From a bacterium (GTDB taxonomy: Bacteria > Armatimonadota > UBA5829): a stretch of 47,907 bases of DNA. The stretch's first letter is position 1, and every line of letters starts with the position of its first letter. The notes beneath the pieces are model-generated. The model did not search any database, was not told the DNA's origin, and saw only the letters and a program-made list of their open reading frames with translations. The stretch lies in NCBI GenBank assembly GCA_021373255.1, contig JAJFTD010000187.1, positions 1 to 47,907 on the forward strand. Reading direction: 5' to 3'. A program made the position numbers and the translations under genes. Below are positions 34,055 to 44,466 of the stretch, in pieces.

Positions 34055-34699
34055 TTAATCCGGTGCAAGATACCGCGCAAACCATTCCGCTGCGAGCTGC
34101 GCCACCTTCTCAAGAGTGCCGGGTTCCTCAAAGAGATGCGTAGCCCCAGGCACTATCACGATCTCCTTTTGCCCACCCAGCAGTTCGTAAGCCTGCTGGT
34201 TAAGCGGGATAACAGGTATATCGTGACCACCGACAATGAGCAGGGTAGGGGCTTTTACCGCCGGGAGATATTCCATTGCCAGGTCCGGCCGACCTCCCCT
34301 CGACACCACCGCGCCGATCTCAGGATGCGCCGCCGCCGCCCGCAACGCCGCCGCCGCACCAGTGCTGGCCCCGAAATAGCCAATTGCAAGATCACGCGTA
34401 GTTTCTTCATCCCGAAGCCAATCCGTGGCGCTCAAAAGCCGACTCGCGAGAAGTCCAATATCGAATACCTTGATCCTGTCATCAGATTCCTGAGGTGTCA
34501 AAAGATCAATAAGCAGCGTGCCCACACCCTCTTCACGCAACCGCCCTGCCACAAACTGATTCCTGGGACTAAACCGCCCACTACCGCTCCCGTGCGCAAA
34601 CAACACAACCCCCTGCGCACCCGCCGGCACCGCAAGCATCCCCTCCATCCACACCGTTTCCGATTGAATCCGCACCAACCGCTCAACTGCGCTCTTCAT
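34055..34699 (-). CDS. Dienelactone hydrolase-like alpha/beta hydrolase
   Basis: A 214-residue alpha/beta hydrolase: VVLFAHGSGSGRFSPRN at the oxyanion turn, nucleophile elbow GYFGASTGAAAA (Ser in GASTG), acid in LLIVGGHD and His in PGATHLFEE. No signal peptide or membrane segment. It is probably an esterase or lactonase of unknown substrate; similar proteins are often found near phosphoribosyltransferase or stress genes, none of which is here. Convergent with the glycosidase gene. GGAG-like site near the ATG is modest. Confidence 0.85.
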   Translation of the reverse strand: MKSAVERLVRIQSETVWMEGMLAVPAGAQGVVLFAHGSGSGRFSPRNQFVAGRLREEGVGTLLIDLLTPQESDDRIKVFDIGLLASRLLSATDWLRDEETTRDLAIGYFGASTGAAAALRAAAAHPEIGAVVSRGGRPDLAMEYLPAVKAPTLLIVGGHDIPVIPLNQQAYELLGGQKEIVIVPGATHLFEEPGTLEKVAQLAAEWFARYLAPD

Positions 34700-34846
34700 A
34701 ATCCCGCGCTCCTCTCACCTGTTTTCGTACACATTCCCTGGGGGGGAGGAGTCGAAACGGAGAATGGACAGAGGGATAGGGTTGGTTGCTACTACCTGGG
34801 TGGCGATCTCTAGAGTTGTACTCAACGCATTAGGTCCAGTATCTGC

Positions 34847-35017
34847 GATCAGTACTGTCGAAAGTTGCTCTTTTCGAGTCCCCGTAGGGGGACTTTGTGC
34901 TGTTGTTGCCGCGACTTTAGTCGCTCGGTAAATGAATTTGCTGCAACAAATGCACGAAGTCGACCTTCGTCGACTGGAAAAGCAGGAAGCATAAATGAAC
35001 TTTCGACAGCACTGATC
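34847..35017. mobile_element. 171-bp element with 20-bp terminal inverted repeats
   Basis: Left end GATCAGTACTGTCGAAAGTT (34847-34866) and right end AACTTTCGACAGCACTGATC (34998-35017) are inverted repeats with one mismatch. Inside are three hairpins: GTCCCC/GGGGAC (34878-34893), GCGACT/AGTCGC (34911-34924) and AGTCGA/TCGACT (34959-34976), plus the pairing GTGC..TTGTTGC with GCAACAA..GCAC, so the whole element can fold as a branched cruciform. There is no open frame, so it would be non-autonomous (MITE- or REP-like). No target duplication was evident at the ends. Confidence 0.6.
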
Positions 35018-35229
35018 TGCAATTTCGGACTTAGTTCTTCCGGATCTATGATACGGCTAATTAGAAAATAGAGCCCACTCTATTAAGTGCACTCAAATAC
35101 ACCTACAAGAGTACGGTAATAGAAAGCGAGCTTTAGTATTTCCAGTCAGCCGATTTGCCGATATATCCCATTTGAACCGGATTGTTATACGTTTGGGCGC
35201 GAATGTATCAATCCTACTGTATATGTAGA

Positions 35230-36402
35230 TTAATCGCAAGATATACCTAGCGACTGAAGCTGTTTTAGTTGATTACGAACCAATGTCATGAACCGCTTAA
35301 TTGTTTCTTGATCGGCTTTCCACAAAGGCGCTTCCATATCTTCATCAGCCCATACAGCAAGGCCTAAATCGTTAGGATCAACTTTCAATAGCTCTTTAAG
35401 ACCAACGTATAATGAATGCACGTCCCGTGTGTAGAGAACATAAATACGCTTCCACTCTTCCTCGTGTGCTTCGTTGATTGGCTTACGTGGATAGATAGGG
35501 CCTTCATTGTTCACGGCTAGTAACCAGTAATGAATCGTGCCATCGGAGTCTTTCCAGTGGAGTTCGACGCGCCGAACGCTAATGGCGCTGTTCCCTACAT
35601 TGCGCACCGAGACTGAAACGCATATCGGATGATGCACCTTCCGCGTCTTCGGATCCACAACTGGGAAATTAATGGAAGTCAGACGACCAATGGTTACATC
35701 AGCCTGCGGCTTTAGCCTCTCTGTCTCTTCTGTGATGACACCTTGACTTTCGGGATATTCTTTTCTGATAACTGCCTCAAGATAACGCCTGAGCGTCTGG
35801 TTTGCCTCTGTGAGCACTTGAACTTGGGCTGACAGCGAAGCTAATTGCTGCTGGCTAGCGCGATCACGAAGCATATCACGGAAGCGTCCGGCCCATTGTT
35901 CACGGAGCCATTCTTCAATATCTGTTGGGTGTTCAAATGTTTGAATTGGGTTGTTCCTGTGCTGTGCTAATATGCGCTCGATGCATCGGAAGACCCGTGT
36001 GTCGTCAACGTGGGCATACTTAATATCTACATTATCTTTGTTTTTCTTGTAAGTCTCATATTCCACGTGCACAGCTCTCTCCACCAGTATATACACGGGA
36101 ATTCCTTTGCTTACAGCTGTGCGATACTCGTGTTCAGTAATACTCTCACTCTCATCTTCGCATAGAGCGTGTGTACTCACTGCACATCCGTATCGGCGGC
36201 CGATCAGCAGCACGAGTATGTCACACTGTTCAACCTCATGGTAGCACGATTCATCTAGCGGCATGGTGTGATCGTAAGATACATCGCCACGTTCAAACAG
36301 GACAGGCTCGTAACCCAATGCAGAGATAAAGGTCTCCAGGCTCGATCTTAGATATTTCAGATCATGGTAGGTTGAACTAACAAATATCCGTGGTCGTGCC
36401 AT
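35230..36402 (-). CDS. DUF4062 domain protein, possible defence effector
   Basis: A 390-residue protein. Residues 1-110 match DUF4062, a TIR/STIR-like domain: RPRIFVSSTYHDLKYLRSSL, ISALGYEPVLFERG, CDILVLLIGRRYG, ESITEHEYRTAVSKGIPVYI. Residues about 160-205 are helical with a short coiled coil (QQLASLSAQVQVLTEANQTL). Residues about 225-330 form a beta-rich domain (CVSVSVRNVGNSAISVRRVE). DUF4062 is often the N-terminal effector or sensor of anti-phage and signalling proteins, usually fused to an NTPase; no NTPase is seen here. AGGGG nine bases upstream fits the ATG. It stands alone next to the 171-bp element. Confidence 0.82.
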   Translation of the reverse strand: MARPRIFVSSTYHDLKYLRSSLETFISALGYEPVLFERGDVSYDHTMPLDESCYHEVEQCDILVLLIGRRYGCAVSTHALCEDESESITEHEYRTAVSKGIPVYILVERAVHVEYETYKKNKDNVDIKYAHVDDTRVFRCIERILAQHRNNPIQTFEHPTDIEEWLREQWAGRFRDMLRDRASQQQLASLSAQVQVLTEANQTLRRYLEAVIRKEYPESQGVITEETERLKPQADVTIGRLTSINFPVVDPKTRKVHHPICVSVSVRNVGNSAISVRRVELHWKDSDGTIHYWLLAVNNEGPIYPRKPINEAHEEEWKRIYVLYTRDVHSLYVGLKELLKVDPNDLGLAVWADEDMEAPLWKADQETIKRFMTLVRNQLKQLQSLGISCD

Positions 36403-36503
36403 TTCGCAAACCCCTATTTCAATGTATTGAGGTTTGATGAGCAGAGGTTAACTTTCGGCAAACATGACACACTCATCAGCACTCAGATCGAAGATACAAT
36501 AGC

Positions 36504-36535
36504 CTCCCCCGCCCGAAAACAACCGGGCAGGGGAG
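36504..36535 (-). terminator. Strong hairpin after the pseudoprotease gene
   Basis: CTCCCCCGCCCG (36504-36515) and CGGGCAGGGGAG (36524-36535) form a 12-bp stem with one mismatch on the plus strand (a wobble on the minus). It ends the htrA operon; the following U-tract is poor. Confidence 0.5.
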
Positions 36536-36544
36536 ACATTAAAA

Positions 36545-37357
36545 CTATTTCGCAGCTTCCGCAGTCTTCTCGGCGGGAGCCTCTGCTGCCTGCGCCGCTG
36601 CCTTGATAATGGTGGAACAAGGCATTACCACATAGATTGAGTCGCTATAGCGTGAAGACATTGAGTCGTCGTCGCGGCTGTCGCTCTTATTCGATTTGTT
36701 GACAACAACCCCAACTGCTTTACCGTCTATAGTGAATGCCGGTGCCCCCACACCCTGGATACCGCATATTACATACATCGTTCTGGGTTTTGTGATTACG
36801 GCCTCTACTCGGTCTATCTCTGCTGCCAGAGCCCGGTTTGCCACAGGTCCGAGGCGGGAGAGGGTGACCAGTTCATCCAGCAGTTGAGGATTACTGGGCT
36901 GAGTGAGATCGACATAAGCAGCCGGTGCCGCCAGCGCCTGTTTTGGCTTGATAAACGCCAGGTCCAGGTCGCGGTCACGCAGAACGATATCCGCGGGAAT
37001 CTCAGTGCCGTCCGCCATCTTCAGCTTCGCATCTATGACATCAATGGTCATGCTGAAGCCCTCCATCTGATCCATTGGGGCGGATGCCGTGGGATCGATC
37101 TCTGAGAGCGATGCTACCGCCAGACCCGACGGGTCGATGATCGTGGCAACCGTTGTCACCTTGTGCTCCTGCTTCTCGGTGTTGCCCTGGTAAGATATCT
37201 TACCTTCAAGTACAAGTGCTACAGTGACAACGGCGTCTTTATGTGCATCGGCTATTTTGCGCCCTTCCTCGGCGGAGTCCGCCCAGCATCCGGTGCTCCA
37301 AAGCAAAGCCGCAGAGCACATCGCGGCGATAACAACTGCTCTTGTCTTTTTGAACAT
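36545..37357 (-). CDS. Catalytically dead HtrA-like secreted protein
   Basis: A 270-residue exported protein (signal MFKKTRAVVIAAMCSAALLW, with a Cys after STG that might be lipidated). The body follows a trypsin-like fold in the HtrA pattern: VTTVATIIDPSGLAVASLSEID aligns with the His-containing strand (in parts), RDRDLDLAFIKP with the Asp region, and GIQGVGAPAFTIDGKAVGVVVN with the Ser region. Where His belongs is Ser-Leu-Ser and where GNSGGP belongs is GVGAPAF, so only the Asp is kept. It has no PDZ domain. GAGGG five bases upstream supports ATG 37357. It starts 14 bases after the active htrA gene, so it is probably a cotranscribed partner: substrate-binding or regulatory pseudoprotease. 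Confidence 0.8.
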   Translation of the reverse strand: MFKKTRAVVIAAMCSAALLWSTGCWADSAEEGRKIADAHKDAVVTVALVLEGKISYQGNTEKQEHKVTTVATIIDPSGLAVASLSEIDPTASAPMDQMEGFSMTIDVIDAKLKMADGTEIPADIVLRDRDLDLAFIKPKQALAAPAAYVDLTQPSNPQLLDELVTLSRLGPVANRALAAEIDRVEAVITKPRTMYVICGIQGVGAPAFTIDGKAVGVVVNKSNKSDSRDDDSMSSRYSDSIYVVMPCSTIIKAAAQAAEAPAEKTAEAAK

Positions 37358-37371
37358 GTATCCCTCTCTCA

Positions 37372-39426
37372 TTATAATGTAGGCCAACTTGGTTCGACTT
37401 CCTGATACATTGTGTGGATTCCTCTATCTACTTTGAAAACCACAACCTTGGGCTTTTGCTTCGCGATAGCTGTCATCGCCTCTTTCAAACCATCGAGCCC
37501 GGCAATTGCTTTGCCGCCTATCTCCGTGATAATGTCTCCAGACCTGAGACCACCCAACGCAGCCCAGCCGCCATCGGCAACCGATTCTATATAGACACCC
37601 TGCGCTTTGTCATCGACATTGCCATCCGCTTTATCTGAGAACGCAATGTCTCTGGCGGTGAACTCAAAGTAGTCGTCGTTGTACTTAGGATAATCACGCG
37701 GCATTTTTGGCGAGGTATTCAGCTCGATTTCCAAGTCCATTGGCTGGCCGTTTCTAATCACTCCCAAAGTAACCTTGCTGCCGGAATCATATTGCCTTAT
37801 AAGGCTTGGCAGGACTTCTTCGTCACCAATCTGGTCAGCCGGGATGTTTTCGCCATCCAGCTTAACAATCAAGTCACCTACCTGCAGCCCCGTCTTCTGA
37901 TCCGAGCCGTCAGCATATACCTGCGTGACCCGGACTCCTGTCTTCCCCGGCACGCCAAGGGCTTGCGCAAGGTCGTCCGTCAGCACCTGCATATCAATAG
38001 GAAGCCAGGTCTTTCTGACCTCCATCCCGGACCGGCTGCTCTCTCTCTTGCCGATCTTGACGACAGTGGCGTAGTTCTTTTTGCCTCGCTCAAAATCGAC
38101 CATTACGGGCACGATTCCGTCTTGACCATCAAGCAGCTTCTTTGTCAGTGTGCTAAGGCTCTTGACGTTGGTGACCGGCTGTCCGCCAACACGCCGTATA
38201 ACATCGCCCTCGCGGATTGCCGGTTTCGCTGACCCTGAAGGCCCGCTCGGAAGCACACCGCTCACAAGCACACCCTCTCGCGAGTCCAACTGAGCTTCCT
38301 TCTGCATCAGATATGTAATGTTCGATCCGCAAATGCCCCACGTTTTCAACTCGTTCTGCCTGTCCTCGGCACTTTGGCGCTCCACAGTGGTCACCTTAAG
38401 GGTGACTACCTTACCAGCTCGAAGCACAGTTGCTTTAACAGTTTTTCCGACCGGTATATCAGCCACAAACTGATTGAACAATGGAACCTCTTCTCTGAAC
38501 CTTGCAGATACGGCGCGCCCATTCAGACCGGTGAGTACATCGCCGGATTTGAACCCGGCTTTCTGCGCAGGGGAGTCGTCCATTACACCACTGACCAGGA
38601 TACCTTTCTTGATCGTGGACGATTGCAACAGTGGCTGCACTTCCAGCCCCATCCAACTCCTGCTTACTTTGCCGTGCTTAATAAGTTGCACAGATACTTC
38701 TTTTACAAGATTGCTGGGTATGGCGCCTGAGAGCCCGAAGCTGATCTCGTTGATTCCCACGATCTCGCCACTGCGGTTTACCAGCGGCCCACCGGAATTC
38801 CCCGGTCTTATTAACGCATCGTGACCGACCCACCGGACAATGGAACCCACATCTTCGCCCGCAAGTTTGAAATCGTCTGCCGACATAAAGCTGGGCATTA
38901 CCATCTCGGTGTTGCTGACTATGCCCATAGTAACGGACTGCGACAGCGCCAGTGGGCATCCCATGGCGAAGACTCTATCCCCGACTTCCAGCTTTGATGA
39001 ATTGCCCCATGGGGCTGTCGGGAATGGCTTGCCGTCCGGTGAAACCAGCTTGATTACGGCAACATCAGACAATGGATCGGTGCCGATCAGCTTCGCATCC
39101 ACCTCGCGCTTATCGGCAAGTGTGCAGACAATACGCTCAGCGTCGGCTGCCACGTGATGATTAGTGACCGCGTAGCCTTCTCGTGATACAATCACGCCGC
39201 TTCCTGCTGATTCTGCTTTAATCTCCCGGCCCTGCTGGTAGTCTGCAGCCACGATATATATTCTGATAAGTGCTGGTCGTACTGCTTCCACGGCTGCGGT
39301 GGTTTCACGTTTTATATCATCGCCAGCGCACATCCCTACGCCTGCGACAGCCATTAGAATTGACACCATTAGTGCAATTGTCAACAAACTGGTGTCGCGA
39401 AATCCGATGCTAAATCTTCTGAACAT
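37372..39426 (-). CDS. HtrA/DegP serine protease with four PDZ domains
   Basis: A 684-residue exported protease. Signal or anchor at 12-34. The protease domain (about 40-250) has an intact triad: TNHHV (H91), DPLSDVAVIKL (D121) and RPGNSGGPLVN (S211). Four PDZ-like domains follow, at about 255-350, 365-455, 470-570 and 585-670 (each with a GDVL/GDVI/GDLI/GDII loop). Most HtrA proteins have one or two PDZ domains. It should degrade or hold misfolded envelope proteins. GGAGGG precedes the ATG. A dead relative lies directly downstream in the same operon. Confidence 0.93.
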   Translation of the reverse strand: MFRRFSIGFRDTSLLTIALMVSILMAVAGVGMCAGDDIKRETTAAVEAVRPALIRIYIVAADYQQGREIKAESAGSGVIVSREGYAVTNHHVAADAERIVCTLADKREVDAKLIGTDPLSDVAVIKLVSPDGKPFPTAPWGNSSKLEVGDRVFAMGCPLALSQSVTMGIVSNTEMVMPSFMSADDFKLAGEDVGSIVRWVGHDALIRPGNSGGPLVNRSGEIVGINEISFGLSGAIPSNLVKEVSVQLIKHGKVSRSWMGLEVQPLLQSSTIKKGILVSGVMDDSPAQKAGFKSGDVLTGLNGRAVSARFREEVPLFNQFVADIPVGKTVKATVLRAGKVVTLKVTTVERQSAEDRQNELKTWGICGSNITYLMQKEAQLDSREGVLVSGVLPSGPSGSAKPAIREGDVIRRVGGQPVTNVKSLSTLTKKLLDGQDGIVPVMVDFERGKKNYATVVKIGKRESSRSGMEVRKTWLPIDMQVLTDDLAQALGVPGKTGVRVTQVYADGSDQKTGLQVGDLIVKLDGENIPADQIGDEEVLPSLIRQYDSGSKVTLGVIRNGQPMDLEIELNTSPKMPRDYPKYNDDYFEFTARDIAFSDKADGNVDDKAQGVYIESVADGGWAALGGLRSGDIITEIGGKAIAGLDGLKEAMTAIAKQKPKVVVFKVDRGIHTMYQEVEPSWPTL

Positions 39427-44317: not shown

Positions 44318-44466
44318 CGTGCGAAGTGGAGAGAATAAACCTACAATATTCATGTATGCTCTACGTGGTGGCATCAGAGACGCCATTTTACCAATGCGGG
44401 CCACATCAGAGATGTGCCCGAACCTTTCTTTTGGCTGTCTTTCTATCCCCTTCCCAACCATCAGAC

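What the first reader, a model, noticed from the sequence alone, without database searches (positions are those of the whole stretch)
34847..35017. 171-bp non-coding element with terminal inverted repeats and internal hairpins
The 20-bp ends match in inverted orientation with one mismatch and the interior folds into three further hairpins. It has no gene and sits beside a DUF4062 gene. It looks like a non-autonomous mobile element or a structured DNA site.
Basis: partly seen in the sequence, partly recalled or inferred. Interest (0 to 1): 0.55.

Follow-up and report, generated by a model that had tools for sequence, protein, structure and literature searches.

The report
Nested palindromic miniature mobile element
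A 170-base gene-free piece of DNA in an uncultured bacterium is one of several copies of a small jumping element that lands in the middle of other DNA hairpins and carries a second, independent repeat hairpin inside it.

Summary
In detail: 19 of 20 end bases match in inverted orientation, the interior folds strongly (z = -8.9), no gene overlaps it, and a DUF4062 gene lies beside it. It is one of nine complete copies in its own genome (Armatimonadota) with unrelated flanks, so it is or was mobile. Two layers can be separated. The outer shell has inverted ends (ATC-N5-TGTCGAAAGTT) and is flanked by direct repeats, 11-12 bp as read, or 5-6 bp if ATC...GAT belongs to the element. It inserts at the centre of palindromes, mostly inside a second, RAYT-linked repeat family. 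The same shell occurs with other interiors here and in another family of the order. The core is an inverted pair of two-hairpin modules that also occur without the shell and flank IS200/IS605-type (HuH) transposase genes in four other genomes, i.e. it is REPIN-like. The shell's transposase was not found, so its class (DDE) is inferred. Each layer is of a known kind; the palindrome-in-palindrome build with two apparent mobilisation systems is the new variant.

The parts
34843..34847 (+). left copy of the short direct repeat (CTGCG) in the 5-bp reading; in the 11-bp reading the repeat is 34840-34850 (TATCTGCGATC)
   Evidence: 4 of 5, or 8 of 11, identical to the right copy
34848..34866 (+). left terminal inverted repeat of the shell, ATCAGTACTGTCGAAAGTT
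   Evidence: the same end pattern occurs 38 times in the own genome at <=1 mismatch, control 3
34867..34876 (+). left spacer between shell end and core
   Evidence: alignment of 9 copies and of shell-free cores
34877..34924 (+). first core module: hairpin 34877-34894, conserved linker 34895-34910, hairpin 34911-34924
   Evidence: 38 distinct modules, both stems kept through paired changes, linker conserved
34928..34975 (-). second core module, inverted: hairpin 34928-34941, linker 34942-34957, hairpin 34958-34975 (the tip of this last hairpin carries an extra 36 bp in six of nine copies)
34976..34997 (+). right spacer between core and shell end
34998..35016 (-). right terminal inverted repeat of the shell, AACTTTCGACAGCACTGAT as read on +
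35017..35021 (+). right copy of the direct repeat (CTGCA); in the 11-bp reading 35014-35024 (GATCTGCAATT)
34828..35036 (.). target halves on either side of the element (outermost 15 bases each side plus repeat); joined, they form a decayed palindrome centred on the direct repeat (9 of 15 positions paired)
   Evidence: >=9 of 15 in 0.8% of 20,000 random window positions

Best explanation
The 171-bp block is a non-autonomous, MITE-like element built of two nested mobile layers. The shell (inverted ends ATC-N5-TGTCGAAAGTT) was moved by a transposase supplied in trans that cut a palindromic target at its centre and left a short direct repeat; inverted ends plus duplication point to a DDE enzyme. 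The core is a REPIN-like inverted pair of two-hairpin modules, a repeat family with its own IS200/IS605-type HuH transposase, and would move as single-stranded DNA. In the window the shell landed in a palindrome between a hydrolase gene and a DUF4062 gene. Shown: repetition, ends, direct repeats, palindromic targets, separability of shell and core, association of core with HuH genes. Inferred: the DDE class, HuH mobilisation of the core, and which layer came first.
For: Nine complete copies with unrelated flanks. Direct repeats in 14 complete shell copies: 11 of 11 in 7, 10 of 11 in 3, 11 of 12 in 2, window 8 of 11, L006 7 of 11. Because the repeat is an imperfect palindrome (GATCAGAGATC), its orientation shows that it is direct, not part of the inverted arms. 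Reconstructed targets pair at >=8 of 15 positions around the repeat in 10 of 14 copies, window 9; background 3.6% for >=8 and 0.8% for >=9. Eight of eleven complete copies in the own genome sit with both ends in palindromes of the B repeat family, of which uninterrupted copies exist. The same ends enclose other interiors in the own genome and in G017. The core occurs without this shell in the own genome and in G002, G003, G004 and flanks HuH genes on both sides in G016, G020, G029 and G031. TnpA of three of these scores over the IS200/IS605 cut-off. Stems covary: hairpin 1 fully paired in 29 of 32 modules against a mean of 10.3 (maximum 20) in 2000 shuffles; hairpin 2 in 36 of 38 against 15.5 (maximum 25).
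Against: No transposase with these ends was found. In G017 all five copies of one interior run off contig ends, and the IS1182-type loci examined do not share the ends. The window's own direct repeat is imperfect. L003, L004 and L006 have irregular junctions that need recombination or deletion. The own genome's core tnpA is split over two frames, so the core may no longer move there. No exact empty site exists for the window: in all four same-genus genomes the whole 34700-36540 stretch, DUF4062 gene included, is missing. The shuffles do not correct for relatedness.
Confidence: 0.78

Rival explanations
1. The whole 171 bp is simply a REPIN/BIME moved by the HuH transposase, and the shell is part of that REPIN.
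For: The core is REPIN-like, and a HuH gene with the same modules exists in the own genome.
Against: Shell and core separate: cores without this shell, shells with other interiors. Direct repeats flank the shell; IS200/IS605-type single-strand transposition is not known to duplicate its target (recalled).
Confidence: 0.12
2. It is a structured RNA or regulatory site (terminator, attenuator, operator) of the neighbouring genes.
For: Strong fold, intergenic, covarying stems.
Against: Multicopy with unrelated neighbours, flanked by direct repeats, absent at this gene pair in four same-genus genomes, no Rfam match. A copy could still act as a terminator secondarily.
Confidence: 0.05
3. The shell grew by recombination or template switching at hairpins rather than by transposition, and the direct repeats are traces of hairpin-dependent copying.
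For: Shell, B element and the 36-bp insert all sit at hairpin tips, and L004 and L006 are hybrid.
Against: The shell ends are constant across different targets, two interior types and two families, as expected of transposase sites. Exact 11-bp repeats recur at distinct loci.
Confidence: 0.08

Closest known systems
MITEs of bacteria (DDE-type, IS-derived non-autonomous elements)
   Same: short, non-coding, inverted ends, direct repeats, multicopy
   Different: no parental transposase found; interior is itself a REPIN-like repeat; target is a palindrome centre
IS elements that insert into REP sequences, e.g. ISRm22 (IS4 family), IS1397/ISKpn1 (IS3), IS621 (IS110) (PMC1525189, passages)
   Same: insertion into REP palindromes; hybrid copies with two different direct repeats are described there for ISRm22 and resemble L006
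   Different: here the inserted element is non-autonomous and carries another REP-like pair; its family is unknown
IS1272 (IS1182 family), inverted-repeat-targeting transposition (PMC5678879; abstract, sections 22 and 24, passages)
   Same: targets inverted repeats of differing sequence
   Different: IS1272 replaces the target and leaves no duplication; here the target centre is duplicated, an outcome the authors only draw as a possible pathway
REPINs and RAYTs (PMC3116915, passages)
   Same: core and B family are inverted pairs of hairpin modules beside Y1 transposase genes
   Different: each module has two hairpins; the canonical GT[AG]G foot is not seen before the first stem of the core in the rows
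Class 3 TnpA-Y1 with atypical structures (PMC6006769, sections 12 and 27 read)
   Same: IS200-like enzyme whose gene is flanked by multicopy atypical hairpins, between an IS and a REPtron
   Different: class 3 profile not available to test; a CnGA foot (CCGA) occurs before the stem only in some modules

Membership tests
MITE (non-autonomous DDE element) | terminal inverted repeats shared by copies | tested here: met
MITE (non-autonomous DDE element) | target-site direct repeats | tested here: met
   12 of 14 complete copies with at most one mismatch; window 8 of 11 or 4 of 5
MITE (non-autonomous DDE element) | short, non-coding, multicopy | tested here: met
   171 or 207 bp, nine complete copies; window copy without ORF overlap
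MITE (non-autonomous DDE element) | ends match an autonomous element with a DDE transposase | tested here: inconclusive
   no autonomous copy seen in 291 phylum genomes or in the genome-contig scan; bodies run off contigs in G017
IS1182/IS1272 family | target replaced, no duplication (IS1272 mode) | tested here: not met
   direct repeats present
IS1182/IS1272 family | IS1182 transposase with these ends | tested here: not met
   12 loci examined of the 30 fetched, none carries paired ends within 3 mismatches
IS4 family | about 10-bp target duplication | tested here: inconclusive
   11-12 bp in one reading, 5-6 bp in the other; L004 and L006 junctions favour the shorter
IS4 family | DDE transposase with YREK motif | not testable with these tools
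   no transposase recovered
REPIN (core) | inverted pair of REP-like hairpin modules | tested here: met
REPIN (core) | cognate Y1 (HuH) transposase gene flanked by the same modules | tested here: met
   5 of 13 tnpA loci, all five with >=54% identity to the query; both sides in four, one side in the own genome
REPIN (core) | canonical GT[AG]G foot before the stem | tested here: not met
   not seen directly before the first stem in the 38 rows (read by eye)
REPIN (core) | TnpA scores as REP-associated tyrosine transposase (NF047646) | tested here: not met
   3 of 3 orthologues score as IS200/IS605 (NF033573); below cut-off or absent for NF047646
RAYT system (B family, the usual target) | RAYT gene inside B-type ends | tested here: met
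   L050: 182-aa protein, NF047646 97.5 bits over cut-off 80, between B ends 755 bp apart

The most novel reading that the evidence does not exclude
Palindrome tips are the shared landing site for several unrelated repeat systems in these genomes, so that elements stack tip-in-tip: a RAYT-linked palindrome receives a transposon shell, the shell holds an IS200-linked hairpin pair, and one hairpin tip of that pair receives a further 36-bp hairpin. The shell would be a carrier whose interior is exchanged for different REPIN-like cores, giving one 170-bp element two ways to move (double-strand cut with duplication, and single-strand HuH transfer).
Probability: 0.3. Interest if true: 0.65.

Novelty: new variant of a known kind. 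Interest (0 to 1): 0.5.

Why it matters
It gives a clear natural case of palindrome-centred insertion with duplication of the centre, the counterpart of the IS1272 replacement mode, and shows what look like two different mobilisation systems combined in one tiny element. It also documents REP-like repeats and their transposases in Armatimonadota, where none of the papers listed by the searches (15 of 79 listed; 20 of 51 listed) held the phylum's name, and it offers an explanation of how long compound palindromes in intergenic DNA arise.

Tried and rejected
Structured RNA: rejected as the main reading (no Rfam match; multicopy with unrelated flanks). IS1182 parentage: ends of 12 of the 30 loci fetched examined, no match. 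Autonomous parent: looked for in G017 by the 133-bp interior, in viral contigs (0 stretches), in 291 phylum genomes and in genome contigs. The hit in a Bacteroidales contig lies inside a predicted gene and has no partner end, and the hit in G122 has no partner end; both are taken as chance. Single exact 13-mers in G003 and G010 have no visible partner in the stretch printed and are taken as chance. First idea of a 3-bp duplication (TGC/TGC) for the window: given up because other copies show the longer repeat. PADLOC on the DUF4062 protein and the B-family TnpA: nothing. Y1-transposase loci C174, C82, C102, C118 and C124 carry no core modules at E <= 0.01.

Full report
Observation. The ends 34847-34866 and 34998-35017 match in inverted orientation at 19 of 20 positions. 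Such a pair is found once in the window and in none of 20 shuffles. As single-stranded DNA the block folds to -48.7 kcal/mol, z = -8.88. It contains four short hairpins joined by two linkers that partly pair with each other. No ORF of 100 aa or more overlaps it. It lies between a hydrolase gene, 34055-34699(-), and the DUF4062 gene, 35230-36402(-).

Copies. The genome in which the window lies (G000, 4.19 Mb, 201 contigs) holds nine complete copies and one truncated copy (L011). Three of the nine are about 171 bp and six have 36 bp more, inserted at the tip of the last hairpin. The flanks differ between copies. The phylum is Armatimonadota: G017, placed in the same order, has contigs of the same lengths as JACPPP01, 'Armatimonadetes bacterium'.

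Outer layer, the shell. A pattern for its end (ATCNNNNNTGTCGAAAGTT, one mismatch allowed) occurs 38 times in the own genome; the reversed control pattern occurs 3 times. Some of these belong to a second type with the same ends but a different, also palindromic, interior (L209, L225). In G017, another family of the order, the 13-mer ACTGTCGAAAGTT occurs 25 times (control 0), again around other interiors. It is absent or single in the other 14 genomes of that call (single in G003 and G010).

Direct repeats. For 14 complete shell copies (11 in G000, 3 in G017) I compared the bases just outside the ends. Seven have an exact 11-bp direct repeat, three have 10 of 11, two have 11 of 12, the window has 8 of 11, and L006 has 7 of 11 with two different targets. 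The repeat is an imperfect palindrome such as GATCAGAGATC, so one can see that it is repeated directly and not inverted. In most copies it has the form GAT-N5/6-ATC. This can be read as an 11-12 bp duplication, or as a 5-6 bp duplication if ATC...GAT belongs to the element. The left junction of L004, where the native target would read ATG but ATC is found, and that of L006 favour the second reading. In that reading the window has CTGCG at 34843-34847 and CTGCA at 35017-35021.

Target. When the flanks are joined with one copy of the repeat, 10 of 14 targets pair at 8 or more of 15 positions around the repeat; random window positions do so in 3.6%. The window's target pairs at 9 of 15 (0.8% of random positions). 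The four below 8 are L003, L004, L006 and L225. In G000 eight of eleven complete copies have both ends in one particular palindrome family (B; read). Its end GTTCGGGCAGATCTCTGATC occurs 80 times at up to 3 mismatches, control 0. Uninterrupted B elements of about 138 bp and a solo 29-bp palindrome are present; they serve as empty sites. One B-type unit (L050) encloses a 182-aa gene that scores as REP-associated tyrosine transposase, so the usual target is itself a RAYT-linked repeat.

Inner layer, the core. It is an inverted pair of modules of about 48 bp, each hairpin - linker - hairpin. I collected 38 distinct modules from the loci fetched. Stems change on both sides while pairing is kept: hairpin 1 is fully paired in 29 of 32 (six modules with the 36-bp insert set aside), against a shuffle mean of 10.3; hairpin 2 in 36 of 38 against 15.5. 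The linker is nearly constant. Shuffles do not allow for relatedness. The core occurs without this shell in the own genome, and in G002, G003 and G004 it sits in a different palindromic surround. Modules flank Y1 transposase genes: of 13 loci found with the own genome's transposase piece, the five with 54% identity or more carry strong module matches (both sides in G016, G020, G029, G031; one side in G000), two others have weak partial matches and six have none. Three of these transposases pass the IS200/IS605 cut-off of NCBIfam. The own genome's copy is split over two frames, by mutation or assembly error. The nearest description in print that I read is class 3 of the TnpA-Y1 survey, IS200-like enzymes flanked by multicopy atypical hairpins (PMC6006769, sections 12 and 27); I could not test class membership.

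Locus history. In all four same-genus genomes the hydrolase gene is next to the trypsin-like gene that in the window occupies 36545-37387; the DUF4062 gene and the element are both missing. The stretch 34700-36540 is therefore specific to G000 among these, but this does not provide an exact empty site for the element.

Mechanism. Inverted ends with a short duplication of the target centre point to a DDE transposase acting in trans on the shell. This is inferred: no such enzyme was recovered, partly because in G017 the element bodies run off contig ends. Insertion into REP palindromes is known for IS of five families, including the IS4-family ISRm22 (PMC1525189, passages). Palindrome-directed insertion is known for IS1272, which however replaces its target (PMC5678879). 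IS4-family elements duplicate about 10 bp and the related emerging families about 5 bp (PMC2266710, passages), so both readings of the repeat fall within that group, which is a lead and not a test. The core would be moved by its HuH enzyme as single-stranded DNA, as proposed for REPINs (PMC3116915, passages). Whether the core entered the shell or the shell captured the core cannot be told from these data.

Verdict. A real mobile element, ordinary in its parts but unusual in its assembly: a palindrome-targeting MITE-like shell around a REPIN-like core. It is a new variant of known kinds rather than a new kind.

Noticed in passing
window 44365-44423 (-): Half of a B-family repeat (one two-hairpin module ending GTTCGGGCACATCTCTGATG on the minus strand), a second palindromic repeat family with about 80 ends in the genome.
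   Followed up: partly
L050 about 1179-1933 (G000:C124:4678-5432): B-family ends 755 bp apart enclosing an intact REP-associated tyrosine transposase gene.
   Followed up: yes
L209, L225 and contig ends L204, L214, L215, L224, L227, L229: Second shell type of about 215 bp with the same ends and another palindromic interior; several copies run into contig ends.
   Followed up: partly
window 34700-36540: DUF4062 gene and element are absent at this gene pair in four same-genus genomes; the DUF4062 gene may be a recent acquisition.
   Followed up: partly
L054:870-2126: In G020 the core modules form arrays with about 128-bp spacing on both sides of the IS200-type tnpA gene.
   Followed up: no
L029, L030, L031: In G004, G003 and G002 the same core sits inside a different palindromic surround (TGCGGATTA ... 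TAATCCGCA or close to it).
   Followed up: partly
L047:1466-1999 (G000:C82): A further REP-associated tyrosine transposase (88.3 bits, cut-off 80); no core module beside it.
   Followed up: no
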